Shown piece after piece: positions 2,111 to 30,415 of a DNA stretch of 64,000 bases. The DNA lies in NCBI RefSeq assembly GCF_949628265.1, contig NC_088789.1, positions 29,257,883 through 29,321,882 of the forward strand, read 5' to 3'. A program made the position numbers and the translations under genes. The notes beneath the pieces are model-generated. The model searched no databases and was not told where the DNA came from. It saw nothing but the letters and a program-made list of their open reading frames with translations. The stretch's first letter is position 1. Every line of letters begins with the position of its first letter. The DNA is from Cloeon dipterum (taxonomy: Eukaryota; Arthropoda; Insecta; Ephemeroptera; Baetidae).

Positions 2111-2332
2111 TCATTTTAAGTTTGATCAATTAACAATAATTGAAATTGTGACAGTGTTCTAATTTATTTGGAAAATTTCTTGACGAGTATTATATTACAA
2201 TTAAAAAAAGATTATCTGTTATTAATTAATAATTCGAGTCTAAAATAGTTATGCCGAGATGCCACTCTCGCGTCAAATCAATCGATTGCTTTTGTACTTT
2301 TAATAAAAGTAACGCGACAATTTTCTCACTAG

Positions 2333-2550
2333 CTGTCGTCCACGAACTGGGGAGAGGGAGGGAAAGCTCGCTGCACATCGCGGCCGAGGGCGGAGACCTG
2401 GAGGTGTGTCGCTGGGTGGTCCAGCAGGGCGTCGATGACGTCCACGCCCGGACCGCAGGGGGGAAGTCGGCGATCGACTATGCCGCCAGCAGGGAATTGA
2501 AGCAGTTTTTTACTGCTTGGGGACGCGTGCCCCTCATTACGCAGATCTGA
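2333..2550 (+). pseudogene. Ankyrin-repeat exon fragment
   Basis: After a good acceptor (TTTTCTCACTAG) the frame encodes a short ankyrin segment: SSLHIAAEGGDLEVCRWVVQ, then a second helix pair ending near AIDYAASRELKQFFTAWG. It stops with TGA at 2548-2550, and AATAAA follows at 2738-2743. The codons are much more GC-rich than in the large ankyrin gene at 15400-25575, so it is not a piece of that gene. It could be the last exon of a small ankyrin gene driven from the GC-rich block upstream, or a fragment of a larger gene left by duplication. No other coding exon could be found for it in the window. Confidence 0.45.
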
Positions 2551-6350: not shown

Positions 6351-8056
6351 AATGTGTGGAAAATTATTACTAAACTAAGGAAACATTTGCTATAAATTCA
6401 TGAATTGCAATATGTGCTTTTATTCTCTTACCTTTCTTAATAAATAGCATTGCAATTGTATCATACTTGTTCATAATTTTTGATTTGATATTCTGTAGCA
6501 AAATTTCAATAAAACTCATAAAAGGTCATTAACGAATTCTTTTTCTTTATTTAGAATAAATACACTCTACTATCTCGTTTGCGAGAAAGAAGGAAATAAA
6601 TAAGAATTCGAAAAATCTCTCAAAATTCTCTAAATTCAGGCCGATAATTCCTATAACGCACAAAAGCCTTTCTTCTCGCAGTGGGTTCTACGACCGCCAG
6701 CTACAGCAAATTCAGAAATTCCTCCAGCAAATATTCTAAAAATCTCTATTCACAAAGAATAAGGGAAAGCCAAATTTAAACCCGCGCTACTTAACAAGAC
6801 AATTGACTTTATTTAATTAAGTTCCTATTTTTAATCAAAATGGATTTCTAGTCTCTAAAAACGATATAAAAGTAAATTTTCTTAAAAGCATGCTGCTCGG
6901 TTGTTAATTTTAAAGTGTAAATATTACATTTGTATTAAATAAACGATAATTATTTTCCAAAATATGACCGAATGAGACAGCAGAGCCGAACTAAAGGTTT
7001 ATAAATATCTCAAAATAAACGATGTTTTTATGAGATTTTTTTGTGTTCAGTATTGACGGTCTCTGAGCAGATTTTACTAAATAATTGGCGTGGCACAAAA
7101 ATATTTATTATGAATTTTCTCGGATTTTGTAACCATTTCAGATATTTAAGCCGTTTAAAATTGCAATATTTCAGATTTGAGCTCATTTGAAACGTCACGG
7201 AGGTTTCAATTGAATACAAAAAATTGTTGACCGTATAAAGCGCGCACTATTTTTACCAAACTTTTGGTCCTTGTAACCACATCTCTGCGCACGAATACTA
7301 AATAAATAAATAAACAGATTTTTGTTAACCTCTGCTCAGTATTTGCCGTGGGCTACGAACTCACTGCATGGGTCTCAATATCAACGCCGAGCGGATACCA
7401 TAATATGGGGCCGCAGAAGAGCTTTTCGCCTGCACGCCGCACCGAGGTCTTTTTATTGAAACGCCTATTAGATATTACATATTGAGCGTCGTATATTTTT
7501 TATCATTAACGTGTTGTCTCAAACCTACTTGGCAGAAAGGCGATTATTTAGGTGCAAAGTGATATTTGGCTCCTTTTTATTGCATGAGCAGGCAGACACC
7601 GTAAAGGGGCCTAGTGAGTGAGAGTGAGAGAAACACGCTTCACACGTCAAGGCCGACGGCGCTGGTGACCGCGCATCTAGGAGCCGCGGCTGAATTGGCC
7701 TAGCCGAATCTATCTGCTCGCACAATCAGTCGGTGCCCGATCGCGGTCGCTGGGCCACGCTCAAGAGAACGATCCTCGATCTCCTTCGCCCAGCAACAGG
7801 CTTTAATCCTCACGGTAAACACATGCTTTCATTTTAAGTTTGATCAATTAACAGTATTTGAAATTTTTACAGTGTTCTAATTAGTTTGGAAAATTTTTTG
7901 CCGAGAATATAAAATATTATTAATTATTAAACAAAATTCCCGCTAATTCCCATTTATGAAATAGGTAAGAGTTATCCCGAGGTGCAACTCTCGCCTCGAA
8001 TAAATCGCTTAATTAACTTTTAATCAATTTAGAGCGACAATTTTCTCACTAGCTGT
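6351..8056. repeat. Duplicated non-coding segment downstream of zinc-finger gene 2
   Basis: Second copy of the segment at 644-2340. It includes the GC-rich block (about 7565-7830, TCAGT at 7726-7730). It diverges from the first copy around 8056, just after the shared CTCACTAGCTGTCGT; the ankyrin exon is absent here. Confidence 0.8.
6508..6513 (+). terminator. poly(A) signal of zinc-finger gene 2
   Basis: AATAAA lies 158 bases after the stop codon, at the position equivalent to 809-814 in the duplicate. Confidence 0.5.
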
Positions 8057-10028
8057 CGTGCCTTGCGCTCCTCCTCACGTTTTTGCTCCGCGCGGGCCTC
8101 CTCTCTGTCAATATTGCTCTTCTCGCGGCTTTATCGCGCGACCGGCACGCTCGCCGCTGTAAACATACCACTCCCGCATCCTGCTCCTCCAAATATTTAT
8201 TATTTTTAGCACGGCCGTGAACTCGATGTGGAGCGTTTCTGTTTCAAATGATTAAGAGACAAATACCAATAGTCGATGGCTTGCTTGCTTTTTCGGCCTT
8301 TCCTGTGGAACCAAAACGTTCTCTAATTTTTCAATGTGTACACTAAAATCGAGATAAAAAAATCAATCAAGGAGCGATTAAGACAGCTAGGCCAAATTAA
8401 AGGATTTCCTCTCAAAATTTTTATAATTTTTCAATGTGTACGCTAAATAAATAAAAAATTTGTCATTAATTACATTAAATTAAAGTAGAATGAATGGCAT
8501 TATAGGCAAGTAATTTTGTTTAGAGCGGTTGCTGATTCGGTACATTAAAAAAGCGGAAACCACACACCACAACCGCAGAGGTTGGTATTTTTATTTTGCG
8601 GTGCGGAACCGCAAAAAATCGCATATCTCGAAAAGCAATATTTACCATTTTAATGTATTTTTGAATTTAAAATTTATAAAATTATTTGCCAGAGCCAACA
8701 CCTGACTTTGCAACTATGTGTTGTCTCTGTTCAAGATTAGACTGTTCATTTCGAAGAGGTGAACGAAGGCCAAAGAAGTAGCTTGCAGACCTGCTATTCC
8801 CTATCGAAACAGCAGCGATCCCATCAGCCATGGGTCCAGATCTATAGGTGAGAATGTTTTCCGATAATTGTAGCACTATTTGTTGCACCTTGACATATTG
8901 AGAGAACGGAATATTTTTAAATGTGTTATATTATCAGGATGGGTGGAAGCGAAATACAAATTAATTCAAGTCCAACAAACAAAAAATTAGTAAATGAGAA
9001 GAAGGGATATGGATGCGTAACTGTTAAAGTGGAATGATACTGGGCAACAATTGAAAATTATTTAAATTGATTGTTGGATGCCTTAAACAATTGACCGATA
9101 AACAATTTGTTCAACAATTTGCAATAATAAAAAATGACCTTCCTACAATAAAAATTCAAATTTTGCCAATTTTCTACAAAATTTACAGTGCTCGAAAACA
9201 TTTTCTCGGCATATTCCGATTCCTCTCGTCGAGACCTGTCCAATTGTGTATGCTACTTATTGGGGAAACTCTTGGTTTTCCAATAAAATCGGATTTCAAG
9301 TAAGGAGACAGCCATTGCCATTTGAAAAGCACGGCAACTTTCCAGCCAATTTTCTCAAAAAATTACAGCGCTCCTTAGGTCAATTTAGGCTTTAACTGAA
9401 TCCTAAGGGATGAGTTTATGCATTGGTAACAAGCATTTTCCAGACTTTTCCAGTATCATTCCTCTTTAAAAAATAATTAGTATTCCAACCGTTGAGCTGA
9501 ACAAATTTTGGTTAGCCATATTATTAAAGTAAAGCTTTACAGAAAATTTGTGAAATTTCATTACTATCTTCTCTTGAAATACTATCTGAAATTGAAGAAA
9601 GAGCTTTAAATTTTCCAACTTTTGCCGTTTTAATTTTTGAGGAAATCTCGGCGAAAAAGTTTGCATGCTAATGCTAATCTATTGTGTCCTTACTGGATAT
9701 TCACGATTTAATTCTCAATTTGCGACAAGAGGAATCAAATCAAGAAGTCATTTAATTTTCGAGGAATTTAGGAAAATATGAAATTTATTGTTTCTCAGTG
9801 CTGAATTCATTATTTCACATTGTTGCTGAATTTCACAAACAATTTAACTTCAACCTGCTGAAGTCAACAATGCAAAATTTTCATAATATATTAAGCTTTA
9901 CTTGTTTAAAAAATGGCCTTGAACTATTTCATTTTTTTAATTACAGATCTTGCAATTAGAGATCGGAAAGAGAAAAATATCAAAGACAGCTAGTGGAGTG
10001 AAGATTTTGGCAAGAGGGGCCATTTAGA
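8057..10028. other. Gene-free interval with one small transposon-like element
   Basis: A GC-rich patch (about 8060-8200) is followed by A/T-rich DNA. The only structured item I see is the TTAA-flanked element listed separately. An acceptor-like site just before 9947 suggests that the next gene has a 5' untranslated intron here. Confidence 0.5.
9024..9469 (+). mobile_element. TTAA-flanked MITE-like element, copy 1
   Basis: An element of about 446 bp bounded by inverted ends, TTAAAGTGGAATGATACTGG on the left and CCAGTATCATTCCTCTTTAA on the right. The same sequence occurs in opposite orientation at 49509-49953 and 55922-56364. There is no transposase reading frame, so it is a non-autonomous DNA element. 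TTAA at both edges is compatible with a TTAA-targeting (piggyBac-like) family, but the family is not proven. Confidence 0.7.
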
Positions 10029-13000
10029 ATGCAGGAAGCAGATCGATACTTTGCTTATTGTTATTTCCCAACTAGCAACAAATATTGCATTTTGCCGTCA
10101 AAGTTTCTGGAGCCTCGCCCGAAATTAAAGGAATCAAGTGCAGGGGTTGCTTGGGCAACCCTTGGAGACGAGTATTGGGGGGCTACATTCCGATCAGCAT
10201 GGCATGACAGGTTGGAAGTGTTCCCTAAAAAAGCGATTTTTCTGGACGGAAACTTAAAAAATGATGAGGATTTCGAAATCGTGTTGGCAAATGCCAAGTT
10301 CTACGATTGCTTTGTGCTGGCAACTGCTTCTTCCGTGGAACAACTGCAACTATTCATCGCGACCTGCGACATCAAAATTCCGAAATTGAAGAGAAAACTG
10401 CCAGAAAGCCCGGCGAATCTTGAGGTTGAAAAAGAGGTTAGTAGTTCAAAATGTATTTATGTGATTTTAGAAAAAAACTAATTTAAAAATATTATGAACT
10501 GAGCTTTTTAATAAAGCAAAAATCATATAAATTGTTTAGATTGGTGTGCGTGCAGCAGAAACGGATGTATTAAGTCCAAATATCGACACCAACGACGAAC
10601 AAAAAAATCCAAGCAGTGACCTGCAGCTTCCAGAAGAAAAAATGATAGGTATTCAAGATCAAAATCACGAGTCTGCCGAAATTAAGTTAACAGGTAATAC
10701 CGTCGTATGTGTCTCATGTATTATTAATAATTTTGCAGCTGAAAATTTGTATATTAAACTATTTACTTGCATTTTTATAAGGATAACCACACTTTGCAAT
10801 TTAAATAAAGGCCATAAATATATAAATTTTGTAAATTTACAGATTTAGAGATGATCAAATTGGAGGAAATTCTGAAGCAGGGTAAGGCAAAATTTTATAT
10901 AATATTATAATTGCAAGATAAAATTAATTTTTCCCTAAATCAATAGCGTAAATTTCCTTAATTCAAGGTATACGAATAAAATTCAAAGGTTTTAAATTTT
11001 AGGGGAATCTGAAGGTCGTCCGGAAGGAGAGGCAAAGCTGGGTTATTTCGAAGTGGAATTGGATGGGAAAATTACAAAACAAAACGCAACAAAGTAAATT
11101 TTTATTCATACATAACCGCGGTCCATGAACTTACTAACTGATCATTTCAAGTGTTTTTGTCCTTGTTGTGCACTACGACTTCAAAAACACCGAAAGATTT
11201 CGAAAATGTGACGCACCTGACGTGGAAAATCTGTGGACGACGTTTAGGCAGAACAGGAACTGCAACATGCGTGAGCTTTTGTCACCGAATAAAATGATTT
11301 TGCTCAAGCTCCTCTCCGACCAAGAAATGCTTCTGCGCTTTTTTCGCTCTACAGGTATTTGGATTTTACCAAATAATAAATTCATCCTTTTCATTACAAT
11401 TTTTAGATGTTCCGGACCTCTTTGTGCTCTTTGTTCTCTCTCATGGGAATGAAAATGGAACAATTTTCACAGACCACAAAGAATTGAATGAATTTGTGTC
11501 CTTCACAACGAACGAAGTGTTTACGTCCTTGAAAAAATTAACCGCATTCGAAAAATGCCTGAAGCTCATCAACTTCGGGGTAAATAATTCGCTTTTTTGA
11601 GTATTTTTTATCGCTATAACTCTTTAATGCTAGCCTTGCCGAGGAACTTTGACAGACGAAAGCGTTGTCAGTGACAAAAACCAATGCGACGACGACAATA
11701 ATGAAAATAGAAACGCTTGCCGGATCACTTTTCACCCTGCGATCCACAATGTGGTCATTTTATATTCGACTGTTGAAAGTATGAGCACAAAAGGTTGTGA
11801 ATTCTTTGGTTGTATTTTAGATTTTTCAGAGATCCTGGCAAACACTAGTAAAATGGGATCGTACTTCATCAGGAAATTCTGTGATTGCCTTAACTGGATC
11901 ACTGATGGAACGCCGCTGTTGACATTTCTCACCTTTGTCCAGCACTTTATTCACAACGGACCTAAAGGCCAGTCGCCAGAGTTAAAAATGTTTCCTCAGG
12001 ACAAAAAATTTGTACTCTGGGGGTGAGTCTTTACAAACTCCACGTGTTTTTGACAATTGGATCTGTGTGGTTTTTTGTCTCAGCTCCGATTTAATTTTTT
12101 TGTGATTTTTTTCAGAAGTTTTAAAATTTGTTTCTTATGCTGATCATATTTGAGATAGAAAAAAACCACCTTTAAAATATTTTAATATTATTTGTAGGCT
12201 AAGCAAAAATGATGCTAAAGTAGATGCATCAAGGATAATCACAACATTGCCAGGATTTTACTCTTGGAGGTCAGAAAAAGCTAAAAATATTAGAGGGCGG
12301 CGAGCGTTCGTCTTGTTTGAAGAGCAGAAGAAAGAAGTGCTAGATATGGAAAATGCTCTGCATCAGAATTTGGACTTCGAGACAAGCGAATGGAGACTGA
12401 GCGAAAGCAATTTGAACTTGTATTTCGAGAAAGGTTCGTGTCCGGTTGAAAGAAAAATACACCAGATTGTAAAGGTCGTCTTTACATTCACAGTGTCTAA
12501 ATTAGAACATGACGTCGGCTGCATTTTGACTTGCATTTTCGGACAAATATGCGAGAATGAAGGAAAGGAAGTCTGCGTTCTGGTGGACAAGAAGGAAAAA
12601 CCAATCACGGATATCTTGCACAGATTTGTCGGCCCGAAAAATAGAAAGTGGATCGGAAAACCCAAAATCTTCTTTCTCGTCAAGCAAAAAGCGCGGGAAA
12701 AGGGCACCGTAAGCAGACCACCGTGTTTTATTTCTTGTATTTGATTAAAATTCAATTTTCCCATTTTAAAAGGACTCGTTGCTCACTTATTCAGATGCTC
12801 ACATCTCTGCTTCTAACCACAGTGGCTGGCTCGTATTGATTTTGAATGATGAAGGTATGCAGATTCAATAGAAAATGTTGAACAATTTTACGAAAGTTTT
12901 AATTTATTTCCACAGATTCCCTGATGCAGCTGATAAAAATCTTGCAAGGCAAAGAGCTGAAACAAGAGGAGAGGAAAAGCAGTCTTCAAGAACTTCTAGT

Positions 13001-14207
13001 TCCTCTGCTTATTTCAAAGACAAAAGAGATAAAAATTCTGTTGAATTCGACTCTGCACTGCTGCCTCAACTTTCCTAACTGGCCGCGGACCTTCATTCAA
13101 CCCGAATTAAAAATTAAAAAGGATGGAAACTCGCCATTTCAAAAAATCGGCTTCGGTGAACTAATTGATAAAGTTAAATTTTCATCCAAAGAGAGCCAAA
13201 AGGACGACTCAAGTGGAGCAAATAATCGTGAGACAGAAGATTCTGCTTTGGCCTGGCTCTTGAGTTCCGTTGCCGGCGCGGGGAAAACCACTGTTCTCAA
13301 AGAAATCGCTTATCAGTTAGCCAAGTTTGATTTAGGGATCAAAGTCCTGCATGTTTCCCTTAAGAAACACTCAATATACATGTTGAATATGTCTGAGGTG
13401 GAAATAAATATTGTCCAATTCCTCGCGGAAACTACGTGGACTGACCCGGATGACATGAAAAACTGGGTTGAAAAGAGGAAAGTCGTCGTGTTCTTAGACG
13501 GTTTTAGTGAAATCCTTTCAGGTCAGAGAGACAAGGCGCTTAAAATTGCGAGGACTTTAAAAGAAATGAGAATTCCTTTCATTATCGGAGCACGGCCCAA
13601 TGAAACTGAAGGGATTCTGAAAAATTTGGAAAATGTAGCAATCGTTGAAATTCAGCCTTTGGACGAAGAAAAACAAAGAGAGCTTTTGCAATTGGTTGCT
13701 CGGAAAAATGAGGCTGTCATCGAAAAACTCGTAACCAATATTGAATTAAAGGACGTCATGGGAAATCCCCTGTATCTTTTATTGCTGGCCGAGTCCGATT
13801 GCGAAGGAGGCATTTTTGATATTTTTGACCATGTGGTGCGGAAGATTATGAAAATATGTATGGAGCGGGACAATGATGACAAGGAAGTGACCGATGAAAA
13901 AGTTGAAATTAATTTAGACCGCCTTCGGTTGATAGCTCATCACGCTCTGAAAGAATTGGATGTCGTTGGACAGGGAGTTTCTGATGAAACCCTGGAAAAT
14001 ATGTGTATACTTGGATTTACGACTGTTTCTGCTGGAAAAGTCAATTTTGTGTATGAGTCTGTTGCCAAATTCCTCACTGCGCAGCGATGCTTGAAAAATC
14101 TTGTTGAAGCATACTCTTCTGATGTCTTGATGTTTGTGGAATCGAGACTGCAATCAAAGCGATTGAGTCAAACATGTAAATTAAATAATAATGTGTTGGA
14201 TAGTTAG
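10029..14207 (+). CDS. Caspase-like/pseudocaspase/NACHT protein without ankyrin repeats (gene A), about 1076 aa
   Basis: Twelve exons join in phase: 10029-10436, 10540-10693, 10843-10881, 11003-11093, 11152-11354, 11407-11579, 11634-11778, 11830-12022, 12198-12433, 12494-12708, 12773-12854, 12916-14207. Order of domains: an unrecognised N-terminal domain (about 1-125); an acidic linker; a caspase-like domain (about 215-450) with the His motif VLSHGNENG (H311) and the Cys motif PCRGT (C358); a second caspase-fold region (about 490-650) with both catalytic positions lost (IFGQ; FFLVKQKARE); a NACHT ATPase with Walker A VAGAGKTT (K770) and a Walker B-type FLDGFSEI; then a winged-helix-like FVYESVAKFLTAQ. 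It stops shortly after this, with no ankyrin repeats. The exon plan and phases match gene B at 15400, its tandem paralog. Ser replaces the second Asp of the usual DGxDE. It is likely a cytoplasmic sensor or regulator; that role is inferred from architecture. Confidence 0.85.
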
Positions 14208-15399
14208 AAAAATTTTGTCATTAATTAAATGTAGCGTTAAGGGCTTTAATCAATATGCTATAACGATGCGCTGCAGAAATGTACCATAGATTCTGATTTA
14301 CTTTTTATTTGTATCGGTGCAGTTCCCGCAATAAAATATTTAGTAGCCCCCTGGATTGATAATGTGTTTTATTAATTCTGGCATATTATGTATATAATAT
14401 TTAAATATTGACCGTGGTCCAAATTATCAGAGTTTCGATGTTGAGGATGTTAAAATTTGAATAGCACGTGCAGTATTTATTTTAAAAATAATAAATATTG
14501 GAACATTAAATTTATAATATTATTAAAATGTAAGAAACCATATATATTAATAAAATCTAACAAATAAAAATTAAATAATTATATTAGTAAAATAGTTTTA
14601 TTAAATTTAACAACAAAAATTAAATAAATGTTTACTTACTAGATTTTTATTAGTTTAGTTTAAAATAGTTGTATATATTTTTAATTGTTTGCATTTAAAC
14701 CTGCGTAATATGCATTTTTTACCAATTTTGATGGGGTGAAAGGTGGAAAAGATTATTTTTCAATAAGACACGATTTAAAGGTAAAATACTGAAAAGATCG
14801 TTTTACTTTGTCAAACCTTTAAAATTAGCTATGGATGCCCAGATGAAGAAACGTGCGCGAGGCCACTTTGCAGTCTCGCGGCGCACGAGAATAATTGGAA
14901 CGTGCGCGGATAAAGGCTTAAGCGGTCAAGGCTCTTCTAAAGGTTAAAACGTTGCCTACTTTCCTTGTTAACTCACGAAAAAAGACACGATGAACAATTG
15001 GAAATTGATTTGCTATGTTTCGTCCTGTGAAGCGTAAGGCTTGCTAATTTTTAATTTATTATATGCATGAATTTAATCGTCTTTTGCGTAAATATTCCTA
15101 CAAAATGCACATTTTTTAATGTAAGCTCATTTTCTAAGTCTCTCCAACGATCAACGATCTGCATTCTTGCAAATTTCATTGCTGCATGAAAATGCGACGC
15201 AGGAATAAAATAATGTATAGCCAGACAGTTGGCGAGCCCCATAATAGTCGTGTTAAAAAGCATTGAGTCATATAAATTATTCAGTGAAAATTCCTAACAA
15301 ATCCTGAACTAAAAAATTACGATTTGAAATCTTTTTTACATTTGATTGCAGGTTCCATGCGCTCCTCGGAAGAGTGAAATACACTGCACATTATCAAAC
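14208..15399. other. Spacer between the two caspase-NACHT genes
   Basis: Very A/T-rich, with no exon apart from a probable 5' untranslated part of gene B: the acceptor TTTGATTGCAG ends at 15350, 49 bases before its start codon. No repeats or RNA genes were recognised. Confidence 0.5.
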
Positions 15400-18300
15400 A
15401 TGGAGGTGGATCGATATTTTGCATATTGTTTATTCACTTCTAGTGAAAAATACAGCATCCTGCCGTCAGACTGTTTGAATCCAAAGCCAAGATTAAAAGT
15501 TTCTACGCCAGGAATTGCGCTGATTTCCCTTGGGAATGAGTATTGGGGGGCAATATTCAAAGCGGCTTGGCATGAGTCATTGGAGGTGGACCCTGATGGC
15601 GATTTTCTCGATGGAAATGAAAAAAACGAAGAGGATTTCAAGCTCTTGTTGCCCGATGTCGAGTACTGCGATTGCGTCGTTCTGGCCACTGCTCCGTCCG
15701 TTGGACAACTTCAAAAAATTGTTGAAACCTGCGGAATCACCGATCCAGATTACAAGAACAAGCGAATAATGGCTTCATCCGTAGAAACAAAAAATACAAA
15801 CGAAAACCAGAATGAAGAGGTACGTCAAAACTAAAGCTGGGTTTTTAATTTAAAATTTAAAAATATATTTCTGTATGAGAATTGTGTTTCAGTAAATGTA
15901 AAATTAATGCATATAGTAATGAATAAAATGAATATGCTTCAGCTGGTTGATCAATCAGAAAGAGTCGGACCAAATCCACACCTCACAAAACAAATCAGTA
16001 TTGATGGAATAGGCAAAAGAAGCGAAGACAATCTAACGTCCCCTCAAGACCTGAAAGAGTACACTTTCCTGGAAGCGGGTAATTTATTAAATATTTTTCA
16101 ATCTTTAAAGATATATAGTGCGCTATTGCCTTGAAAAATTGTATTGTGTTTAATATTTTGACATAAAACACAGGACTTGCTAAGATAACGATGGAGGAAA
16201 TTTTAAAGCGAGGTAAGGAATGAACTCGAATATTAATTTTTTGGGTTTGGAATAAGTTTGCGCCCTTTGTAGGCGAGGATGAAGGCAATCCAGATGGACC
16301 AGCAATGCTTGGATTTTTTCAATCAAATTCAAACGGAATTATCACGAGACAAAACGCCGACAAGTAATTTATTAATGTTTCCCCAGCTAAATCTTATAAT
16401 CTAATTTTGAATATTTTATAAGCGTTTTCGTCCTTGTTGTACATTACGATTTCAAGAACAGCAAGAACAATTCAGATTTTCGAAATTGCGACGCTGCAGA
16501 CGTGCAGAATCTTAGGGAGACGTTCGAAAAAAACAGAAACTGCAATTTTCGTGATCTTTTGTCACCAAACAAAACGATTTTGCTGGAGCTCCTTTCCAAC
16601 AAAGAAATGCTCCTCAGATTTTTCAATTCAGCAGGTACCAATAAAAGAGCAAAAAATGTAATTTCAGTTAAAATGAACAAGCGTACTGATCCAGAGATCC
16701 CGGCGGTATTTGTTCTAATCGTCCTATCTCATGGAGACGAAAATGGGAAAATTTTCACCGACCAATGGAGTGAAGATTTAAACGATTTTGTTCACTTTAC
16801 AACTGATGAAGTTTTTAATTCCTTGAGCAGGCTCTCTGAATTCGACAAATGCCTCAAAATTATTAATTTAGGGGTAAGTCATGCCATTTTAGTTGCAAGA
16901 GGACGAAGAGAAAAATTAATTTGTGTATTTAAATCAGCCATGTCGTGGAACATCGCCTGATACCATAATTAAAAATACCAGTGCTACCAGCACGCACGAA
17001 AACAAAAATCCATGCAGAATTACTTTCGCTCCTGCAGCCCACAATATGGTTATTCTCTTTTCTACGGTTGAAAGTAAGCTTTTAATTATTTAGTTTTGAA
17101 GCCTCCGTGATTGAACTGGAAACATTTCAGCAACCTACGCCAACACGGATGCAAGCAGGGGATCTTGGTTTGTCCGCAACTTGTGTAATTGCCTCGATTG
17201 GACCGAGGAAAAGCCACTTTTGCCTTTTCTCACGACAGTCCAGTTCGCTATGCACCAAGAGTCGCTAACAGCGATGAACTTGCTAACAAAAGACCCTCTT
17301 GGACAGACGCTAGAGATTAGATTGTTTTCTCAAAACCAATGCTTCTTTATTTCGAGGTGAGTTTTATCTAGTTCAAAATATATTATTTAAGCGCAGATAT
17401 ATATATTTTAATGATAAGAATGAACTGCATTCTTAATTACTATAAAACCCTATATGTACGCATATATAATTACAATGATAGGGGTTTTAGCAGGTGCCTA
17501 AAAGAGGATTTGGAAAACAGCATCAAAATATCGGAGTCCGTGAACTACTCGTGGAAATCAGACCATGGGCAAAACATCAGAGGACGGTCAGCCTTTATCT
17601 TGTTCGAGCAGAAAAAAGAAGAAGTAGAGGAATTAAAAAATGCCCTGCAACACAATTTGGACTTTGACACCAACGATTGGAAACTGAGTCAAAGAAATTT
17701 GAACCTGTATTATCAAAAAGGTTATCAGCCAGTTCAAAGACTTTCAACTGGAACTTATATTGAGCTTTGCAATTTTCAGTTTCAAATTTAGAACATGATG
17801 TTGGCTGTATTTTGACCTGCATATTCGGCCAAATAAGAGAAAACAAAACGAAAGGGGTCATCGTGCTAGTGGACAAAAATGAAATACCAATCTCGGAAAT
17901 CCTGCACCAGTTCGTCGGTTCGAAAAATGACAGCAGCAGATGGGTCGGAAAGCCGAAAATCCTTTTTCTCGTTAACCAGGAAGCACTGGAATGCGACTCT
18001 GTAAGGCTTGTTGCTGGCAAAAGAATACATTTTACCTGAAATTTCTCCAACATATAGTTTGCTCTGACAAAGAGCGAGGCACACATCTCGGCTACAAATC
18101 ACAGTGGCTGGATCGTTCTGATTGTAAATGATAATGGTGCGGACTAAACAATATTTTAACAATAATTTACATTAATTTATATGTTTACAACAGATACGCT
18201 AAAGCAGCTCATTGGAGTGCTGAACGATAAGAAGTTAAAGGAGGGGAAGAAGAGCCTGCAAGACCTTTTGATGCCGTTGCTGATTTCTCAAGAAAAGAAG

Positions 18301-21300
18301 GAAAAAACTCTGCTAAACTCGACATTGCAGTATCTCGTAAGCTTTCCCAACTGGCCTCTGTCATTTATTAGTCCCGATTTGCTATTTAAAAAATTTCACA
18401 ACTTTCCTGCCAAAACAATTAGGTTTGACGAGCTGATGGGTGAAGCTGAAATTTCCTTTATAGATACAATCAGAACAGATTCAGACCAAAATGAATCTGG
18501 CACTGGGAACCATGTTTGGATCCTAAGTGCTGTTGCCGGTGCTGGGAAAACAACCGTTTTGAAAGAAATCGCCCATCGGCTTTCTAAGCATGAGCGTGGG
18601 GTAAAAACTCTCGTAATCCCTTTAAAAAAATACTCCATGCAAATTTACAACATATCCTCACTAAATTTCGATGAAATTGAATTCCTCTCGAAAACTGCTT
18701 GTTATTCTATAGCCGATATTAACGACTTGATTCAAACGAAACAAATCATCGTTTTCCTGGATGGTTTTGATGAAATCTGTCAGAATCATAGAGACAAGGC
18801 TATGAAATTGGTGAAAGGGTTGAAGGATAAAGGAGTTCCCTTTTGTGTTGGAACAAGGCCTCACGAGATAAATGCGATTATGAAAATTTTGAAAAATGAG
18901 GCATTTTTTGTCGAAATTGAGCTTCTCACCAAAGCTAAACAACTAGAGTTTTTGCAGTCTGTGTCAGGGAAAAATAAGGACGAGAGCATAGAGTTTTTAA
19001 ACAGTCACGAAGAGAAGGACATCCTTAAGAACCCTCTACATCTCTCCCTTCTGGTCGAGTACAATCGCAAAGGAAACTTGTACGAACTTTATGAAAGTGT
19101 AGTGCAACAAAAAGTGAAGATGTGTTTGGAGAGGAGCAATGATTTTAAACCAGTTGCTGAGGAGAAAATAATATTTGCATTGCACCTCCTTCGCTTGATA
19201 GCTTTCCGGTTTTCAAGTGGAAAAGACCTAGTTGGACCAGGAGTTAGACTTGAAGACCTCAAAAAAATGAACGATCTTGGAGTTGCAACTGTGTTGGATG
19301 GAAATGTGACTTTTGTACATCGCACCTTTGCTGAATTTCTAACCGCACAAAAATTCGTAAATGATCTCCACGTTCTTGAAAAAACTGATGTACCTTTGTT
19401 TGAAGAAGGCTTTGAGCAGTGCAGACAGTTCGTCGATTTATTCTACTCAACTGCAAAGGCAATGAAAAGCGATGAGAAAAACACTAAAACTCTATCAACT
19501 TTCACGAACTCCATCGACCCATATAATTTAATGAAGCATACATGCGAAGAAAACCTGAGGAAGATTTTCAAGATGGTAAAGCCTCAGGTTTCATTAAAAA
19601 ACAAACAGGGAATGAATGGTTTGCACCACGCCTTAAGGCACCTGGAGATGGTTAAATTGGTGCATGAAAGAGACAGCAGCTTGGCCACCGATGTGACAAA
19701 AGACAGTGACACCTGTTTGCACCTTGCGATTAATGACTGGCATTGCAGCGAGGATGTGGCTATTTGGCTTATGCAGCACACTGGTGTCGATGCAAACGCT
19801 GAAAACAAAAATAGTGAAACAGCATTTCTATTTGCCTGCATGAGAGAAAAATGGGAAGTCGCCCGCACCTTGCTCGAAAACTGTTTTGACAGACTAAAAA
19901 AACACGGAAATGATATGGCTGTTCTGATTTGTGTGATACAATCAAGACGATCGGACATTTTGCAAAAACTGCTCAACCTTGGCTTGGATATAAGCGTTAA
20001 GACTAAAAAAGAAGGAGCAACTGCTCTCCATTTGGCTGTAAGGGAAAATTATCCCGAATTGGTCCAAATGCTTCTGGAAAATGGCTCTCAGGTGAATTCT
20101 CAAACAACAAAAGGAGAGACTGCACTGCATGAAGCCGTGGAAGGAAATAGGTTTGATTTAGCGCAAATGTTACTTGATCATGGTGCCGACGTAAATTTGA
20201 CAAATGAATCCGGTAAGAGCGCTCTCCACGTTGCCGTAACCTCAAATTATCCTAAATTAGTGAAAAAACTGCTTGAATTTGGTTCAGACGTTAATATTCA
20301 AGATCTTACAGGAATGACAGCTCTACATCATGCAGTGCAAAAAAATAATTTAGAAATAGCGCAGCTATTAATTGAGAATGGTGCAAGCGTTGATCTGAAG
20401 GAGGATGAGAACGGACGGACTGCTTTACACACAGCTACATTTAAGCATCACAGTGAATTGGTGCAACTTTTGCTTGAACATGGCGCCGATGTGAAAATAC
20501 AAGACAAAAACGGTCATAGCGCACTGCACCTGGCTATGGGTGAAAATGATCCAGAATTAGTTCAAAATCTCCTCGACCATGGTGCAGAGGTTGATTTACT
20601 AACACAAGATAAAGCTTCAGTTTTGCACCTTGCAGCGCAGAACAATTTTTCCGAAATAGTGCAAAAACTGATAGACAACGGTTCTGACGTAAATTTGATT
20701 GGAAGAAATGGATTTTCTGCTCTACATTCGGCTGTGATGAACAATAGTGCAGCATCAGTGCAAATTCTGCTTGATAATAACGCTGATGTGAATGCAAAAG
20801 AGTTATGGGGGTATACCTCTCTACACTTTGCAGTTCTTTACAATTTCCCAGAATTGGTACGTAAGCTTCTCGCTGCCGGTGCTGATATCGATTCAAAGAA
20901 AGAAGACGGGTGGACTGCACTTCACATCGCAGTTTGTAAAAATAGACCAAAAATAGTACGAATATTACTGGACCACAATGCTGACATGACCTTAAAGGAC
21001 AATAAAGGGTGGTCCGCTCTGCATGAAGCAGTTATAAAGAATTATCCAGATGTTGTGCAAGAGTTTTTATGCCATGGGTTTAACGTTGGTTTAGAAGAAA
21101 ACGGATTTACTGCACTGCACAACGCTGTTCGAGTTAATAATCAACAGTTAGTGCGCATGCTGATTCATGACGGAGCAGATGTCAATAAAATATCAGAAAA
21201 TGGATTAGCTGCTCTGCACATTGCAGCGAAAAATAAAAATGCAGACATGATTCAAATTCTGCTTGATCATAACGCAGAAGTGAATTTACAAACGAATAAA

Positions 21301-24300
21301 AAATGGACCGCTCTTCTCTTTGCCGTAAAAAATAACTGCAAAGAATCAGTACAGAAGCTGCTTGAGAATGGTGCAGACGTAAATTTGAAAGAAGAAGATG
21401 GACTCTCTGCTTTGCACTTTGCTGTGAATTTAAATTTTACGGGATTAGTTGAAAAGCTCCTCAACCATGGAGCCAAAGTAGATTCAGAAACGAATGAAAA
21501 AATTACTGCCCTTTGCATCGCCATAAATAAAAATGGCTATGAATCGGCACGAATACTGCTTGAACACGGAGCAAATGTAAATTTACCATCACCAAATGAA
21601 CAGACTGTCTTGCATGACGCCGTGAGCAACAATAAACGAGAGTTAGTGCAATTATTGCTTAAAAATGGCGCTGATGTCAACTCACGAACAAGATTTATCG
21701 CCCTAAATATTGCTGTGGAACGAAATTTCTCCGAAGTGGCACAAATTCTACTTGACCACAACACGGAAGTTAATTTGCAAACCAAAGAACAGCTTACCAC
21801 TCTCATGCACTTAGCTGTGGAAAACAATTTTGTTGAAATAGTGGAAAAACTCCTCTTCCACGGCGCCGATATAAACCTATGCCGAAATGGACGTATAGCA
21901 CTACACACAGCAGTAAACAAAAATAATCCAAAAGTGGCTAAATTGCTACTAAACAATGGGGCCGAAGTAAATTTAAAAGAAGAAAATGGTTTAGCTGCTC
22001 TGCACATTGCTGTATATAACAATGATTTAGAATTGGTGCAGCTTCTGCTTGATTTCGGAGCCGACATTAATTTAAGAATAGAGGCTGGAGGGACTGCTCT
22101 GGATCTCGCTTTAAATAAAAAATGCCCTGAATTGATACAAAAGCTACTGGAACACGGTGCTGACGTCAATCTAACGAATGAAGATGGATGGTCCACCCTT
22201 CACAAAGCTGTGAGCAAAAATGATTCAAATTTGGTGAAAAAGGTGCTAGACTTTGGAGCCCAAATAAATGCCCAAACACGTGAAGGATGTACTGCTCTGC
22301 ACATCGCCGCACTTAAAAATTATCCTGATGTGGTGAAAATGCTGATCGATCACGGTGCCGATACCACTTTGAAAGATATAAAAGGATTCACCGCTGTGCA
22401 CTTTGCCGTGAAGGGGAACAATCCTGCATTGGTGCAATATTTTCTCAACCACAGCACGGTTGCAACTTTACAGATACAAGATAAGTGGATTGCTCTACAT
22501 GAAACTGTAAGTAGAGTTGGCATGGAGAGTTCACAGGAGCTGATCTTCTACAGAGATTTTGTAAATCTGAAAGACGGAGATGGATGGACTGCTTTACACT
22601 ATGCTGTGTTCCTCAACGAAGCAGAGTTAGTGCAGGAGATTCTTGATTACGGAGTGGAAATAAATGCCAAAACAAGAAATGGACAGACTGCTCTACACTT
22701 CGCTTTGGATAAAAACAATCCAGAATTGGTTCAAAAGCTTATCGATCACGGATCAGACCTAAGTTTAGAGACCGATGGTATTTATCCAGCTTTGCACACA
22801 GCTGTGATTAGAAATCACGTAGAAATAGTTCAAATACTTATAAACAACGGCGCTGACGTAAATTTGAAACAAAATGACGGGTGTACTCCTCTGAACCTGG
22901 CTGTCCAACTAAATAAATTAGAAATGGTTGAAAAGCTGCTCTATCACGGTGCCGATGTAAATTTGAAGGCCCAAAAAGGATGGGCCGCGTTGCACGTAGC
23001 CGCAGGCTATAATTATTTGGAAATAGCGCAATGCTTGCTCACTCACGGAGCTGACGTTAGTTTAAAAAGTAATGATGGATCGACCCCCCTGCACTACGCT
23101 ATTATTTTAAATAACCCAGATATGGCGTTTAAGCTGATTGATCACGGTGCTGATACTAATATATGGGATAATGATGGTTGGTCCGCACTGCACCTCGCAG
23201 TGGGCAAGAACTTTTCTGAATTAGTACTGAAACTACTTCAATACGATGGTGTTGATGTAAATTTTCGAGCAAAAGACGGATCCACCGCTTTGTTCAATGC
23301 TGTTAAAAAAAATTTGCCTGATATGGTGCAACTTCTGCTCAACCACGGTGCAGATGCTAATTTGCAGTGTATTGATGAAGAGACTGCCATTCACATCGCC
23401 GTGAACACGAATCGTGTAGATCTGTTCCAAAAACTCATTGAGCATGGCGTTGATGTAAATATAAGAAATCAAGCTGGATTGACAGCTCTACATCTAGCTG
23501 TGCAGAATGATTTCCCACATTTGGCGCAACAGTTGCTTGAACATGGTGCGGAAGTTAATGCAAAAATAAATTCGGGAGAGACAGCATTGCATCTCACCAC
23601 GGATGAAAATTTTCCTGAATCGATGCAAATTCTGCTCGACCATGGCGCGGATGTAAATGTTCAAGACGAAGAAGGTTGGACCGCTTTGCACAAAGCTGTG
23701 TTGAACAATAATTTAGACTTTGCGCAGAGGCTTCTGGAGCACGGTTCAGAAGTGAATTTACAAACGAAAAAGGGACTTACTGCTCTTCATTTCGCTGGGA
23801 ACAAAAACCATCAGGAATTGGTGCAAATTCTGCTCAACCACGGTGCCGATACAAATGTTCAAGACAGAAATGGATGGACTGCTTTGCACGGGGCCGTGCA
23901 AAGTAATAATCCACACCTCGTGCAAAAGCTTATCGAGCACGGCGCCGAATTGAATTCACAATCAAACATTGGATATACTGCTTTACATGCTGCAGTGGGT
24001 CTTAATAATTCTTGTTTGACACAATTGCTGCTCGACCATGGAATAGACGCAAACCTCAAGGATGAATTAGGGAGAACCGCTTTGGGTATTGCTGCATATG
24101 AAAATTTTCCAGAAATTTTTCAAAAGCTAGTAAATCATGGTGCCGATTTGAATTTAGAGGGATGGTTTGAAGAGTCCGCCGCCTCGACCGACACTGAGGG
24201 ACAAATTTGTTTGATGGACACTGTCGTGAGCAAAAACCATCATGAAATTTTAAAAATACTTTTAAACCAGGACGTCGATGGCAATATTAGTAAAGCTCTT

Positions 24301-25575
24301 CTGCCACTTGCTGTGCTAAACAATAAATTAGAATTAGTGCAAATTCTTCTCGAAAACGGTACTGAAATAAATTCAAAAATGTGTCAAGGATGGACCGCTC
24401 TGCATTTGGCCGTGGAAAAACAGAATTACGAATTGTTGATCGTTCTTCTGAAACACAGCCCTGACTTAAATTTAAAAAACGCCAGGGGAGAAACCGCTTT
24501 GGAACTTGCTGTCCTGTACAAGTACAAAGAATTTGTGCAAACGCTATTAGAGAACGGCGCTGATGTAAATTCACAAGATCAAAGAGGAACCCCTCTGCAC
24601 ATTGCTGTGGGTCCAAATAATGCCGATTATGAGTTGGCGCAAATGCTTCTTGACCACGGCGCTGATGTAGATTTAAAAGCAGAAGGATTTTCGGCACTGC
24701 ACCTTGCTGTTCAAAACAATGATCCGGAAATGGCGCTTAAGCTGCTCAAACGTCGTGCCAATCCAAACCTCACGACAGACCAAGGATTTTCCGCACTGCA
24801 CCTATCAGTGATGGATAATTATCCAGAGTTAGCGCTAATGCTGCTTGAAAATGGCGCTGACATTAATTCAAAAACTCAAACAGGTATGACTGCTTTGTAT
24901 CTCGCTGTTATGAACAATAATAAGCAATTAACGGAGTTGCTACTTGAACAAGGTGCTGACTTAAATATCGTAAATGAAGACGGATATACCGCTCTGCACT
25001 TCGCTGTGTTTAGAAATTATCCCGAATTGGTGGAGACACTGCTCAATAAAGGGGCTAATACTAATTTACAAATACCAAATGGCTCGACTGTTCTTCATTT
25101 AGCTTTGCGCAATCGTAACTCACAATTGGTCTATAAGCTACTAGACCACGGCGCCGATGTCAATCTTAAAGACAATGAGGGATGCACCATTCTGCACACA
25201 GTTGTGAGAAACAACTTTCCTTTCTTGGTTGAAACGGTGATCAACTGTGGAGCGGATGTAAATTCAAAAACGTTTAAAGAATGGACTGCACTGCACTTCG
25301 CCGCGAAAAGAAAAAATCAACCCCAGCTTAAAATGTTGCTGGACAACGGCGCTGACATCGATGCACAGAACAATGTTGGAGATACTGCTCTACACATTGC
25401 AGCACAGAAATTCTTCCCAGATTTGGTTCAAACACTTCTCGACCAAGGTGCAGATTTCAGTTTGAAAAATAAGGCGGGAGATACTGCTGTGGACGTTGCC
25501 AAACGCATGAATGATCCAGAGTTAGTGCAAATGTTTGATGTCAAGGTTGAAAAAGAAACCGATAGCGAGAAGTAA
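15400..25575 (+). CDS. Caspase-like/pseudocaspase/NACHT/ankyrin(about 60) protein (gene B), about 3115 aa
   Basis: Twelve exons in phase: 15400-15819, 15943-16078, 16174-16212, 16273-16363, 16423-16634, 16695-16873, 16938-17073, 17131-17356, 17494-17720, 17780-18000, 18058-18136, 18194-25575. Domains: unrecognised N-terminal domain (1-125); caspase-like domain (about 215-460) with VLSHGDENG (H312) and PCRGT (C361) and a p10-like FSTVE...RGSWF; second caspase-fold region (about 495-690) with IFGQ and FLVNQEALE in place of SHG and QACRG; NACHT with VAGAGKTT (K774) and FLDGFDEI (D845); helical/winged-helix part ending FVHRTFAEFLTAQ; then about 60 ankyrin repeats (about 1128-3105), mostly G-x-TALHxAV...LLxHGADVN, all in one exon. 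The layout is NLR-like, with the protease module on the same chain. A sensing role with oligomerisation through NACHT is inferred. The exon 6 and exon 9 acceptors have in-frame alternatives, which does not affect the frame. Confidence 0.88.
19609..25545 (+). repeat. Ankyrin-repeat array, about 60 units of about 99 bp
   Basis: Tandem coding repeats inside the last exon of gene B. I count about 60 units of 32-34 codons. The first four and a few around 24130-24320 are irregular; the rest fit the ankyrin consensus. Copies differ substantially at the DNA level, so the array is not freshly expanded. It is a protein repeat, not a CRISPR or satellite. Confidence 0.9.
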
Positions 25576-27647: not shown

Positions 27648-28962
27648 GGATAGAAATAATGGTCTTATATAATATTTACAGGCATATATTAACTTTGATG
27701 ATACTAATAACCTAATAGACAACAAATATTTTAGTTATTGATAACAAGAAATAGAACACAGCGCTTGTGAAACTAACACCATTTAATTAGCAATGATCTA
27801 ACAGTTTTGAGGCTTTGTTCAAGTCTATTGTTTTAATTTTCCCGCATCATGTGTGTATTCAATTTTTTGACTTTTGGAATTCAAATAAATAGTTCAAGTG
27901 TGTACGTGAGCTTTTATCTCAAACCCTCTAAACTAATACTACTTTAATGTGTTCAGTTACTAAAACCAAAATTTTAGCCAGCAAATTAATTTTCATTTTG
28001 CTTAAAAACCAACGAGATTTTAGCATTGCGATCGATTCGTCTCGTCAAAAAGAGTCTACAGCGGAAATACCCTTGTTTAATTGGAGGAGATCAAGCAAGA
28101 GCGGAGAATACACGGAAGCACAACAAAGTATTATGAAAATTCACATGCGTCTGCTGAGCCCGCAGACGGAGGCAAACAACGGATGGAAAAATGACGGCAG
28201 GAAACATTAAAATGGCGAAATATATAGGAACAAGTATTTTAACATTGAGTCACGGCACCGAGAGAGAAAATGCAAATAAATAGCTTTTTCCATCGAATGA
28301 AAAATTGATTTCGCCTCTTGTCCGCGCATAATAGAAAACCTGCTCTCTCCCGGAATTTCTTTTGTTCCAATTCTGTGTTTTATTTTTGCTTTCAAGAATA
28401 GGATTCCATCTCCGTTTCTCTGGGGAATAAATTCAAATGTTTGTGTTAAGTGAAAAATACTCACAAAAAGCTGTTTAATTTTAAAGCAAGAAATTTATTG
28501 AGTGAATTTATTATATGAAAGACAAGGATCGAAATTATTATATTGAATTCTCTTTTCATTTTCATCAAAATCCGGCAGTAATGATGTGCTTATAGTGGAA
28601 CAGCCTTACAAAAATTAATTTTATACATCTGTTGAAATTTCGATTAGCGTGTTTTTGTTTCAAAGTGTATTAAGGATTATTGGGTGTCAAAGAATTTCTC
28701 AGAATGGTTTACATTTCAACAATGGTACCTGGTATTAACATTGCAACAAAAAATGCAAGGAGAATAAAGCAATTTTAATCACGGACTGACGTTTCAGCGT
28801 GAATTAGGAGTACATGATTTCGCATGCGATTCGAGTATATCATCTTTCCACAAATGTAACAATTTTCCCGAACTTTGTTTTTTGCATGAACCACTTTTTA
28901 TGTATTTTTAGATATTACAATGAGACGAAAGTCTCAGTCCGGACATGGCAAATGACCAACAA
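27648..28962. other. Gene-free interval before zinc-finger gene 3
   Basis: A/T-rich. An 87-codon open frame at 27947-28210 has no recognisable features or paralog. The right end is the 3' flank of the minus-strand zinc-finger gene 3 and resembles the flank of gene 4 near 37.7 kb. Confidence 0.5.
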
Positions 28963-30415
28963 TCAAATTTTGTGATTTACAGAGATATGATGTTTCAAAT
29001 TAGTGATATTAGAGAAACTTTTCGGGCAGTGAGCGCAAAACTTCAAGTTGGCTTTGTTGTGGATTCTATTCAAATGTGTTTTCAACCATTTCTCACTTTT
29101 GTAGCACTTTTTGCAGGGTTCACACTTGAAACCGAACTGTTTGTGCTGAATTCCGCGCGTCCTGTGCTCTCTTTTCGTGTGGTATTTCATCAATGATATA
29201 TGCATGAATGTTTTTTGGCACTTGTCACACTTGAACAGAGTTTCTTTGCATGATTTCAAGTGTAACTGATATAGTCCTGAACATTGAAATTTATTTTTGC
29301 AGCGAAGGCAATTTTTCACACTAAAGTGACCACTTTGATTGAAACTCTTCACGGAGACACTCAATTTGCACAAAAAACAAACTTTGAAAGTGTGCAAACG
29401 CCTAATATGATATCTCAGTGAACAATCAGAAGAGAAAGAATGTCCGCAAATGTGGCACACACTTGATTTTGGGATATGTTTGCTAATGATGTGCTCTTTC
29501 AAACTATATTTAAACGTTGCTCTATAGCCACAATCATTGCATTGAAATCTCTTAGCCTCGTTTTCACTTTTGTGAGCAGAACCAAAGTGTGTTTCCATTT
29601 CCATTTCATTTCTGAAGAATGAAAGGCAACCATAACTAGAGCATTTTACAGGAAACTCTTTGTGAACACGCTGAACATGTTTGTTGTAGTTATTTGATCC
29701 CTCGAATTTCTTTCCACAAAAGCTGCACTCGACTTTGTCCCGTTGTCTTGAGCTTTCATGAACATTCTTTGTGTGCTCTTCTTTTTCTTCAAGAGTGTGG
29801 AAATAAGTGGAACACTTGCGATTTCTACATCTGATTGCGTCATTGTGCATATTCTTAATGTGTCCTGCCAAATTGCGGGAATATTTAAACCTTTTCCTGC
29901 AGTAGATGCATACATTGGGCCGTATTATAGCTTCAATTGGACTGTCATTTTCTTCTCTCTCACTGTTCGATTCAATTTTCTCCAACTGCACCCAACACGG
30001 CTCCAATTTCCCCTCTAAAAATGGATAAATATTTAATAAAATTAAAAAATTCCATCTTTTATTTTTTCACCGAAATAGTTCTTCCGCAACTCCTTTTCCG
30101 CATCGTCCAAATGATCTGAATTCCTGGCGGGCCACCACACCAAAGCATCGTCCGCCATTCGGTCGAATTTCCAAAGGAACCTTAAGGGAAATTCCATGAA
30201 TCAATTGAAGAATTACTTCTTTTTTTAACTTACTCTGCATCCCAGGTGCAAAAGTAGCAAATCAGGTCGTGATCCTCGATTTCCTCAACAAACTCGTGTC
30301 CGCAGACATTTAGAAACGAAGTCTGCAGTTTCTCTTTGTCCACGTGGACAGCGAGGACAGCGCCGTCCGCAGTCGGACGCTCGCAAACCACGCACAACTC
30401 CTTTTGAAACGTCAT
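28963..30415 (-). CDS. ZAD/C2H2 zinc-finger protein (gene 3), 447 aa
   Basis: Minus-strand gene with exons 30234-30415, 30071-30180 and 28963-30014, in phase. The ZAD-type N-terminus starts MTFQKELCVVCERP and has its second pair as CYFC; a FLWKFDRMADDALVWW segment follows; then about eleven C2H2 fingers from PNVCIYCRKRF to HHISVNHKI. It has the same exon plan as the gene at 4769-6350 but four more codons in exon 2 and one finger fewer at the end. A longer upstream ATG exists in frame, but the internal Met matches the paralogs and the upstream part matches their leaders. Likely a nuclear DNA-binding factor. Confidence 0.9.

What the first reader, a model, noticed from the sequence alone, without database searches (positions are those of the whole stretch)
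10029..25575. NLR-like pair with caspase, pseudocaspase and NACHT on one chain, one with about 60 ankyrin repeats
Two adjacent paralogs share a 12-exon plan: novel N-terminal domain, caspase-like domain, degenerate caspase-like domain, NACHT, and in gene B a giant ankyrin array. Sequence shows SHG and PCRG motifs, Walker A VAGAGKTT and Walker B FLDGFDEI. Established knowledge: NLRs normally recruit caspases through CARD or death-fold adaptors, and insects are generally described as poor in classical NLRs. A sensor with its own protease domains in an arthropod genome would be a self-contained immune or cell-death receptor. The immune role is inference.
Basis: partly seen in the sequence, partly recalled or inferred. 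Interest (0 to 1): 0.93.

Follow-up and report, generated by a model that had tools for sequence, protein, structure and literature searches.

The report
Caspase-NACHT receptor pair, one ankyrin-tailed
Two neighbouring genes in what looks like an animal genome encode proteins that join a caspase-type protease, a degenerate caspase-like part and an NLR-type ATPase switch on one chain, one of them with nearly 60 ankyrin repeats, which suggests an immune or cell-death sensor that carries its own protease.

Summary
Two head-to-tail paralogs, A (10029-14207, 12 coding exons, 1076 aa) and B (15400-25575, 11 coding exons, 3135 aa), splice into single open frames with GT-AG introns. Both carry an unknown N-terminal domain, a caspase domain (Pfam 55.6 and 56.7 bits, cutoff 21.4) with catalytic His and Cys, a second region that matches only the large-subunit half of caspases and has no SHG or QACRG-like motif, and a NACHT-type STAND ATPase. 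B adds 56 scored ankyrin repeats, about 59 in all. Computable dN/dS is 0.11-0.38, lowest in the degenerate region.

Corrections: A has one intron more than B; FLDGFDEI is only in B; the caspase motif is PCRG and two of three Asp-pocket residues are replaced; the second caspase-like part is supported over p20 only; NACHT falls just under Pfam's cutoff; "arthropod" could not be tested.

Most likely mechanism (inferred): ankyrins sense, NACHT oligomerises, and the clustered caspase, paired with its degenerate partner, cuts. STAND proteins with caspase-like proteases are described in fungi and bacteria, LRR-caspase fusions in amphioxus. So: a new variant of a known kind, with an unusual tandem caspase/pseudocaspase plan. 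The immune role is untested.

The parts
10029..14207 (+). Gene A, 12 coding exons: 10029-10436, 10540-10693, 10843-10881, 11003-11093, 11152-11354, 11407-11579, 11634-11778, 11830-12022, 12198-12433, 12494-12708, 12773-12854, 12916-14207; 1076 aa
   Evidence: single open frame, GT-AG at 11 of 11 introns; phases
15400..25575 (+). Gene B, 11 coding exons: 15400-15819, 15943-16078, 16174-16212, 16273-16363, 16423-16873, 16938-17073, 17131-17356, 17494-17720, 17780-18000, 18058-18136, 18194-25575; 3135 aa
   Evidence: single open frame, GT-AG at 10 of 10 introns; phases
10029..10436 (+). A exon 1: N-terminal domain, no known family
   Evidence: no Pfam hit at E<=5; 53% identical to B exon 1; best model pLDDT 68.6, no PDB fold at E<=0.001
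15400..15819 (+). B exon 1: same N-terminal domain
11152..12022 (+). A exons 5-8: caspase domain; SHG at residue 310, PCRG at 357
   Evidence: PF00656 55.6 bits, residues 235-458; PDB profile search; motifs
16423..17356 (+). B exons 5-7: caspase domain; SHG at residue 331, PCRG at 380
   Evidence: PF00656 56.7 bits, residues 239-469; motifs
12198..12854 (+). A exons 9-11: degenerate caspase-like region; GKPKI at residue 602, no SHG, no QACRG-like motif
   Evidence: p20 half by profile; p10 half not recognised
17494..18136 (+). B exons 8-10: degenerate caspase-like region; GKPKI at residue 632
12916..14207 (+). A exon 12: NACHT-type STAND ATPase and winged-helix-like region, then stop; Walker B reads FLDGFSE
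18194..19478 (+). B exon 11, first part: NACHT-type STAND ATPase; VAGAGKTT, FLDGFDE, FVHRTFAEFLTAQ
19906..25533 (+). B exon 11, rest: ankyrin array, residues 1247-3122 (converted to bases from the exon lengths); two weaker units lie before it at residues 1182 and 1217
   Evidence: 56 units with positive score of 59 hits
14330..14335 (+). AATAAA, possible poly(A) signal of gene A, 123 bases after its stop
   Evidence: one of 11 AATAAA/ATTAAA matches between the genes

Best explanation
A and B are a tandem pair of NLR-like proteins whose N-terminal effector is a caspase itself. Shown (from sequence): both genes keep, as single open frames under purifying selection, an N-terminal domain, a caspase domain with both catalytic residues, a degenerate caspase-like region and a NACHT-type ATPase; B adds an ankyrin array. 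Inferred: B is the sensor. Ligand binding by the ankyrins releases the ADP-bound NACHT, which binds ATP and oligomerises, bringing caspase domains together. Caspases work as dimers, so the degenerate region probably serves as the built-in partner that stabilises or gates the active caspase, as c-FLIP(L) does for caspase-8, within or between chains. The product is cleavage of a substrate that starts cell death or signalling. A, with no ankyrins and altered Walker B and winged-helix positions, would be a helper or regulator joining B's oligomer.
For: Single-frame gene models with GT-AG introns and matching phases. Caspase domain far above Pfam cutoff in both; of 142 PDB sequences at E<=1, all 60 shown are caspases. 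SHG and PCRG in both. Degenerate region: 12 of 13 PDB hits at E<=10 are caspases, best E 0.0045; hhalign to a caspase profile 90.7% probability, score 47.2, against a top score of 31.7 (33.6%) in 100 column shuffles and 15.2 reversed. It has the lowest dN/dS, 0.11, measured over A residues 495-690, which include the start of exon 12. NACHT: NCBIfam EruA (NACHT antiphage protein) E 4.1e-07 in A and 2.3e-09 in B, though far under that model's full-length cutoff; Walker motifs. Ankyrin array. Precedents: fungal protease-NLRs (PMC12881547, passages); c-FLIP(L) pseudocaspase with caspase-8, which can raise or lower its activity (PMC7864959, passages); an Aedes caspase-like decoy that enhances its paralog (title in the reference list of PMC3141678).
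Against: Two of three S1-pocket residues that give caspases their Asp specificity are replaced (Gln to Gly, Arg to Thr; residue roles recalled), so activity or Asp specificity is uncertain. The p10 half of the degenerate region is not recognised (hhalign 0.2%, no better than shuffles); direct hhalign of the two caspase-like regions gives 0.03%; Pfam finds no caspase in it at E<=5; its structure model failed. NACHT is under Pfam's cutoff, B passes NB-ARC instead, and the PDB profile search finds no NLR. No RNA, ligand, substrate or infection data. Host not identified.
Confidence: 0.5

Rival explanations
1. Both caspase-like parts are inactive and act as a scaffold or decoy: the protein titrates or activates a separate caspase rather than cutting by itself.
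For: Gln and one Arg of the S1 pocket are replaced in both paralogs; the second region has no SHG and no QACRG-like motif; caspase-like decoys are described in Diptera (PMC3141678, passage).
Against: The catalytic His and Cys are kept in both paralogs although dS of the caspase domain is about 1.8, which is hard to explain without selection on catalysis.
Confidence: 0.25
2. An active protease switch of this kind, but with a role other than immunity, for example in development or removal of cells.
For: Nothing in the window ties the genes to infection; dN/dS is under 0.4 in the five computable segments, and the ankyrin repeats show no recent expansion (mean pairwise identity 37.7% aa, best pair 60.6%; best nucleotide pair 68.7%).
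Against: STAND ATPase plus protease plus a sensor part is a plan seen or predicted in conflict and cell-death systems of fungi and bacteria.
Confidence: 0.17
3. The caspase-like exons and the NACHT-ankyrin exon belong to separate transcripts and the joined protein does not exist.
For: No RNA evidence was available; gene models were built by hand.
Against: The junction between the exon before NACHT and the NACHT exon is phase 1 in both paralogs, splits the same Asp codon and keeps the flanking residues, while introns have diverged.
Confidence: 0.05

Closest known systems
Fungal NLRs with an N-terminal CHAT (caspase-like) or S8 protease domain
   Same: protease effector on the same chain as an NLR core; protease-repeat sensors with ANK, TPR or WD40 are related (PMC12881547, passages; PMC9815663, passages)
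   Different: CHAT, which the passage puts in the caspase clade with a separase-like fold, not a Peptidase_C14 caspase; no tandem caspase/pseudocaspase is mentioned in the passages seen
Amphioxus LRR-caspase and TNFR-caspase proteins
   Same: animal proteins that wire a recognition part directly to a caspase domain (PMC2575513, passages)
   Different: NACHT is not named as part of those chains in the passages; QACXG motif there, PCRG here
Caspase-8 with c-FLIP(L)
   Same: an active caspase paired with a catalytically dead caspase-like partner (PMC7864959, passages)
   Different: two separate proteins with death-effector domains; here one chain and no death fold found
Animal NLRs (NACHT plus LRR)
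   Same: STAND/NACHT core, in B with a C-terminal repeat array
   Different: ankyrins or nothing in place of LRR, no CARD/DED/Death/Pyrin by Pfam; protease on the chain. [quoted passage not shown]
Bacterial STAND/NACHT conflict proteins with peptidase or caspase effectors
   Same: STAND core with N-terminal peptidase or caspase in some members (PMC10907252, passages; PMC8195603, passages); the NACHT region's best NCBIfam hit is the NACHT antiphage protein EruA
   Different: prokaryotic, other domains; the pattern scan of the prokaryote collection gave 448 candidates, none confirmed as a relative, and that scan reaches only fairly close relatives

Membership tests
Caspase (Peptidase C14, PF00656) | profile match above the curated cutoff | tested here: met
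   55.6 and 56.7 bits, cutoff 21.4
Caspase (Peptidase C14, PF00656) | catalytic His and Cys | tested here: met
   SHG and PCRG in both paralogs, aligned to SHG and QACRG of typed caspases
Caspase (Peptidase C14, PF00656) | S1 pocket for Asp (Arg, Gln, Arg; roles recalled) | tested here: not met
   one of three kept: first Arg yes, Gln to Gly, second Arg to Thr in both paralogs
Caspase (Peptidase C14, PF00656) | proteolytic activity after Asp | not testable with these tools
   needs protein
Pseudocaspase (second region) | p20 half of the caspase fold | tested here: met
   by sequence profile only; against: Pfam no caspase hit, direct comparison with the first region fails
Pseudocaspase (second region) | p10 half of the caspase fold | tested here: inconclusive
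   hhalign 0.2%, score 11.4 against a mean of 11.0 in 60 shuffles; not part of the structure job
Pseudocaspase (second region) | caspase fold by structure prediction | tested here: inconclusive
   p20 half only, pLDDT 35.2 from three rows, query read through one in-frame 60-base intron
Pseudocaspase (second region) | catalytic residues lost | tested here: met
   no SHG; the His column falls on Gln or Asn depending on the alignment; the Cys position lies just past the aligned part and is judged by eye from GKPKI (Gln)
NACHT STAND ATPase | Pfam NACHT above cutoff | tested here: not met
   24.1 and 23.9 on the long chains; on the exons alone 26.3 (A) and 25.1 (B); cutoff 26.7; B passes NB-ARC (25.1, cutoff 23.5)
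NACHT STAND ATPase | Walker A and D-G-x-D-E Walker B (NACHT signature, recalled) | tested here: met
   both in B; A keeps Walker A but reads FLDGFSE
bona fide animal NLR | NACHT plus C-terminal LRR | tested here: not met
   ankyrins in B, no repeat match in A
bona fide animal NLR | N-terminal death-fold domain | tested here: not met
   no CARD, DED, Death or Pyrin hit by Pfam at E<=0.01 in A or residues 1-1100 of B
Ankyrin repeat protein (B) | tandem 33-residue repeats | tested here: met
   56 units with positive score, 43 of 55 spacings exactly 33; Pfam Ank_2 96.6 bits on the first part

The most novel reading that the evidence does not exclude
An animal NLR-like receptor that is a whole inflammasome in one chain: sensor array, NACHT oligomeriser, active caspase and its own c-FLIP-like activating partner, working as a sensor (B) and helper (A) pair; if the host is an arthropod, in a lineage reported to lack classical NLRs.
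Probability: 0.35. Interest if true: 0.85.

Novelty: new variant of a known kind. Interest (0 to 1): 0.62.

Why it matters
If the chain works as drawn, an animal cell would need no CARD or death-domain adaptor to go from sensing to proteolysis, and the question how an NLR switches on a caspase could be studied in one polypeptide. If the host is an arthropod, it would also show that an animal outside the NLR-rich groups built an NLR-like receptor of its own, with a protease-on-chain plan that the papers seen here describe in fungi and bacteria.

Tried and rejected
Own genome search: none held. Structure of the degenerate region: model too poor to use, so no fold search was made with it. Fold search of the N-terminal domain: 44 matches at E<=10, none at E<=0.001, highest probability 0.11; PDB sequence search 1 hit at E<=10, E 1.5. 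Direct hhalign of caspase region against degenerate region: 0.03%. PDB profile search of the NACHT region: 3 hits at E<=1, none an NLR. Relatives by pattern scan: none confirmed for NACHT in viral contigs or genome contigs, for the caspase domain in genome contigs or viral contigs, or for the N-terminal domain in viral contigs; genome contigs holds bacteria and archaea and viral contigs viruses, so absence says little about animals. Foreign origin of the ankyrin part: relative codon use correlates 0.76 with the rest of B and 0.75 with a zinc-finger reading frame, which gives no support for it. Ankyrin remnants outside B: none at E<=0.1 by tblastn. PADLOC: low-scoring matches only, best mad8 19.5 bits. 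Rfam and tRNA scans: nothing, so no help in placing the host.

Paper searches, listings only: (30 of 136 listed; 13 of 14; 15 of 15; 12 of 22; 20 of 72; 12 of 9,294; 4 of 4; 25 of 114; 3 of 3), 66 (5 of 5). No title or abstract start in these lists names a caspase-NACHT protein of an arthropod; the 25 listed matched only the phrase tandem caspase. The library holds open-licence papers only, so this does not show that none is in print.
Full report
What is there. Two paralogous genes lie head to tail on the + strand. Gene A runs from the ATG at 10029 to the stop at 14207 in 12 coding exons (1076 aa). Gene B runs from 15400 to 25575 in 11 coding exons (3135 aa), the last of them 7.4 kb. Introns are GT-AG at 11 of 11 (A) and 10 of 10 (B), and each spliced sequence is one open frame. 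A and the first 1000 aa of B are 48% identical over 1029 aligned columns. The 10 shared introns have the same phases; A has one intron more, phase 1, between its exons 5 and 6. I set the splice sites by hand with the paralog in view, so this agreement is support, not an independent test. Introns keep only short matches, the longest listed 28 bases.

Selection. By a crude Nei-Gojobori count dS is 1.16 (N-terminal domain), 1.80 (caspase), 2.01 (degenerate region, taken as A residues 495-690 and so including the start of exon 12), 1.44 (NACHT) and 1.36 (after NACHT), and saturated in the linker. dN/dS is 0.25, 0.15, 0.11, 0.31 and 0.38 in that order and cannot be computed for the linker. With dS this high the ratios are rough, but all five are well under 1. 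Neither gene looks like a pseudogene.

Caspase domain. Pfam Peptidase_C14 matches residues 235-458 of A (55.6 bits) and 239-469 of B (56.7 bits), cutoff 21.4. A two-row profile finds 142 PDB sequences at E<=1; all 60 shown are caspases, best E 7.4e-09. SHG is at 310 (A) and 331 (B), PCRG at 357 and 380. The roles of these residues are recalled. So catalysis is possible, but classical Asp specificity is not supported.

Degenerate region. Exons 9-11 of A and 8-10 of B. Pfam finds no caspase here at E<=5; the one family listed is AAA-ATPase_like, below cutoff. The PDB profile search gives 13 hits at E<=10: 12 caspases (10 of them caspase-8, best E 0.0045) and one phage capsid protein. hhalign against the caspase profile gives 90.7%, score 47.2; of 100 column shuffles the best scores 31.7 (33.6%); reversed it scores 15.2; NACHT and N-terminal profiles give 0.2% and 2.0%; the first caspase domain gives 97.1%. 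With a profile that also holds the first domain it is 92.0%. The aligned part is p20 up to GKPKI. There is no SHG, the His column falls on Gln or Asn depending on the alignment, and the Cys position, just past the aligned part, is Gln by eye. Against the reading: the p10 half is not found (0.2%, score 11.4, mean of 60 shuffles 11.0), the two caspase-like regions of the same chain do not align directly (0.03%), and the structure model has pLDDT 35.2. I call it a degenerate caspase-like region with a supported p20 half.

NACHT. Pfam NACHT scores are 24.1 (A, whole chain) and 23.9 (B, residues 1-1100) against 26.7; the exon pieces alone give 26.3 and 25.1. B passes NB-ARC (25.1, cutoff 23.5). NCBIfam's NACHT antiphage protein EruA matches A at 4.1e-07 and B at 2.3e-09, far below that model's full-length cutoff. 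Walker A is VAGAGKTT in both, Walker B FLDGFDE in B and FLDGFSE in A. A later motif reads FVHRTFAEFLTAQ in B and FVYESVAKFLTAQ in A; that the His contacts ADP in NLRs is recalled. The PDB profile search found no NLR in 3 hits. A STAND-type ATPase is well supported; NACHT is the better reading by motif.

Ankyrins. After three passes of a repeat HMM built from B itself, 59 hits remain, 56 with positive score, starting at residues 1247 to 3102; 43 of 55 spacings are exactly 33. The other three hits are weak units at 1182, 1217 and 2105. In base coordinates the 56 span about 19906-25533. Mean pairwise identity is 37.7%, best pair 60.6%, and neighbours (37.1%) are no more alike than distant units, so there is no sign of recent expansion. 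A has no array, and tblastn found no match to it outside B at E<=0.1.

N-terminal domain. Exon 1 of both genes, 53% identical, has no Pfam hit at E<=5 on the clean domain (a longer reading frame of B gave DUF5560 at E 0.03, below cutoff). Its best model is fair (pLDDT 68.6, pTM 0.64, but the other four models score 36-42) and matches no solved fold at E<=0.001.

Host. No genome is held. Spliceosomal introns and a Peptidase_C14 domain closest to animal caspases suggest an animal (inference). C2H2 zinc-finger reading frames are in the window, and two of three lectin-like frames scanned match Lectin_C just under Pfam's cutoff.

How it most likely works. The anatomy suggests sensor repeats, an ATP-driven oligomeriser and a protease that is switched on by being brought together. 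The degenerate region, with the lowest dN/dS, is most simply a built-in dimer partner, on the model of c-FLIP(L) and caspase-8 (PMC7864959, passages). B would sense, A would help or restrain. All of this beyond the domain map is inference.

What is known. Fungal NLRs with CHAT or S8 proteases, linked to gasdermin genes (PMC12881547, passages; PMC9815663, passages), bacterial STAND proteins with peptidase or caspase effectors (PMC10907252, passages; PMC8195603, passages) and amphioxus LRR-caspase proteins (PMC2575513, passages) cover the idea in other lineages. PMC8260672 (passages) names some of the domains found with NACHT in cnidarians, among them CARD and TIR; no caspase protease domain is named in the passages seen. 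PMC4083563 (passages) reports coral NACHT/NB-ARC proteins with ankyrin repeats and loci in pairs or triplets. [quoted passage not shown] I therefore file this as a new variant of a known kind. No animal protein database was available, so the same plan may already sit in public genomes as an unnamed protein.

Noticed in passing
window 44239-54778 and 50705-61186: Large tandem duplication, 90.7% identical over 10664 columns, with a further partial copy (44239-48707 against 57116-61529, 81.6%). It carries similar lectin-like reading frames at 45772-46143, 52217-52807 and 58628-59002; the first two were scanned and match Lectin_C just under cutoff.
   Followed up: partly
window 3-2339 and 5707-8059: Duplicated stretch, 87.6% identical over 2376 columns.
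   Followed up: no
window 28943-30734 and 37722-39526: Duplicated stretch, 89.0% identical, with zinc-finger reading frames; the one at 28963-30066 and another at 4995-6350 match zf-C2H2, the one at 37915-38850 was not scanned.
   Followed up: partly
window 2233-2550: Reading frame with an ankyrin match (Ank_4, 25.5 bits, cutoff 22.7); no match to B's array at E<=0.1.
   Followed up: partly
window 9024-9474, 49504-49953, 55917-56364: Copies of a 450-base sequence, 90-91% identical to the first, which lies about 550 bases before gene A and is inverted relative to the other two; perhaps a mobile element.
   Followed up: no
gene B exon 5, about 16635-16695: B has about 20 extra residues where A has its extra intron; the insert begins with GT and an AG follows 33 bases on, so it may be a former intron kept as coding sequence.
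   Followed up: no
gene A exon 12, 12916-14207: A's ATPase has Ser for the second Asp of Walker B and Tyr for the winged-helix His of B, as if A were a helper with a changed nucleotide cycle.
   Followed up: partly
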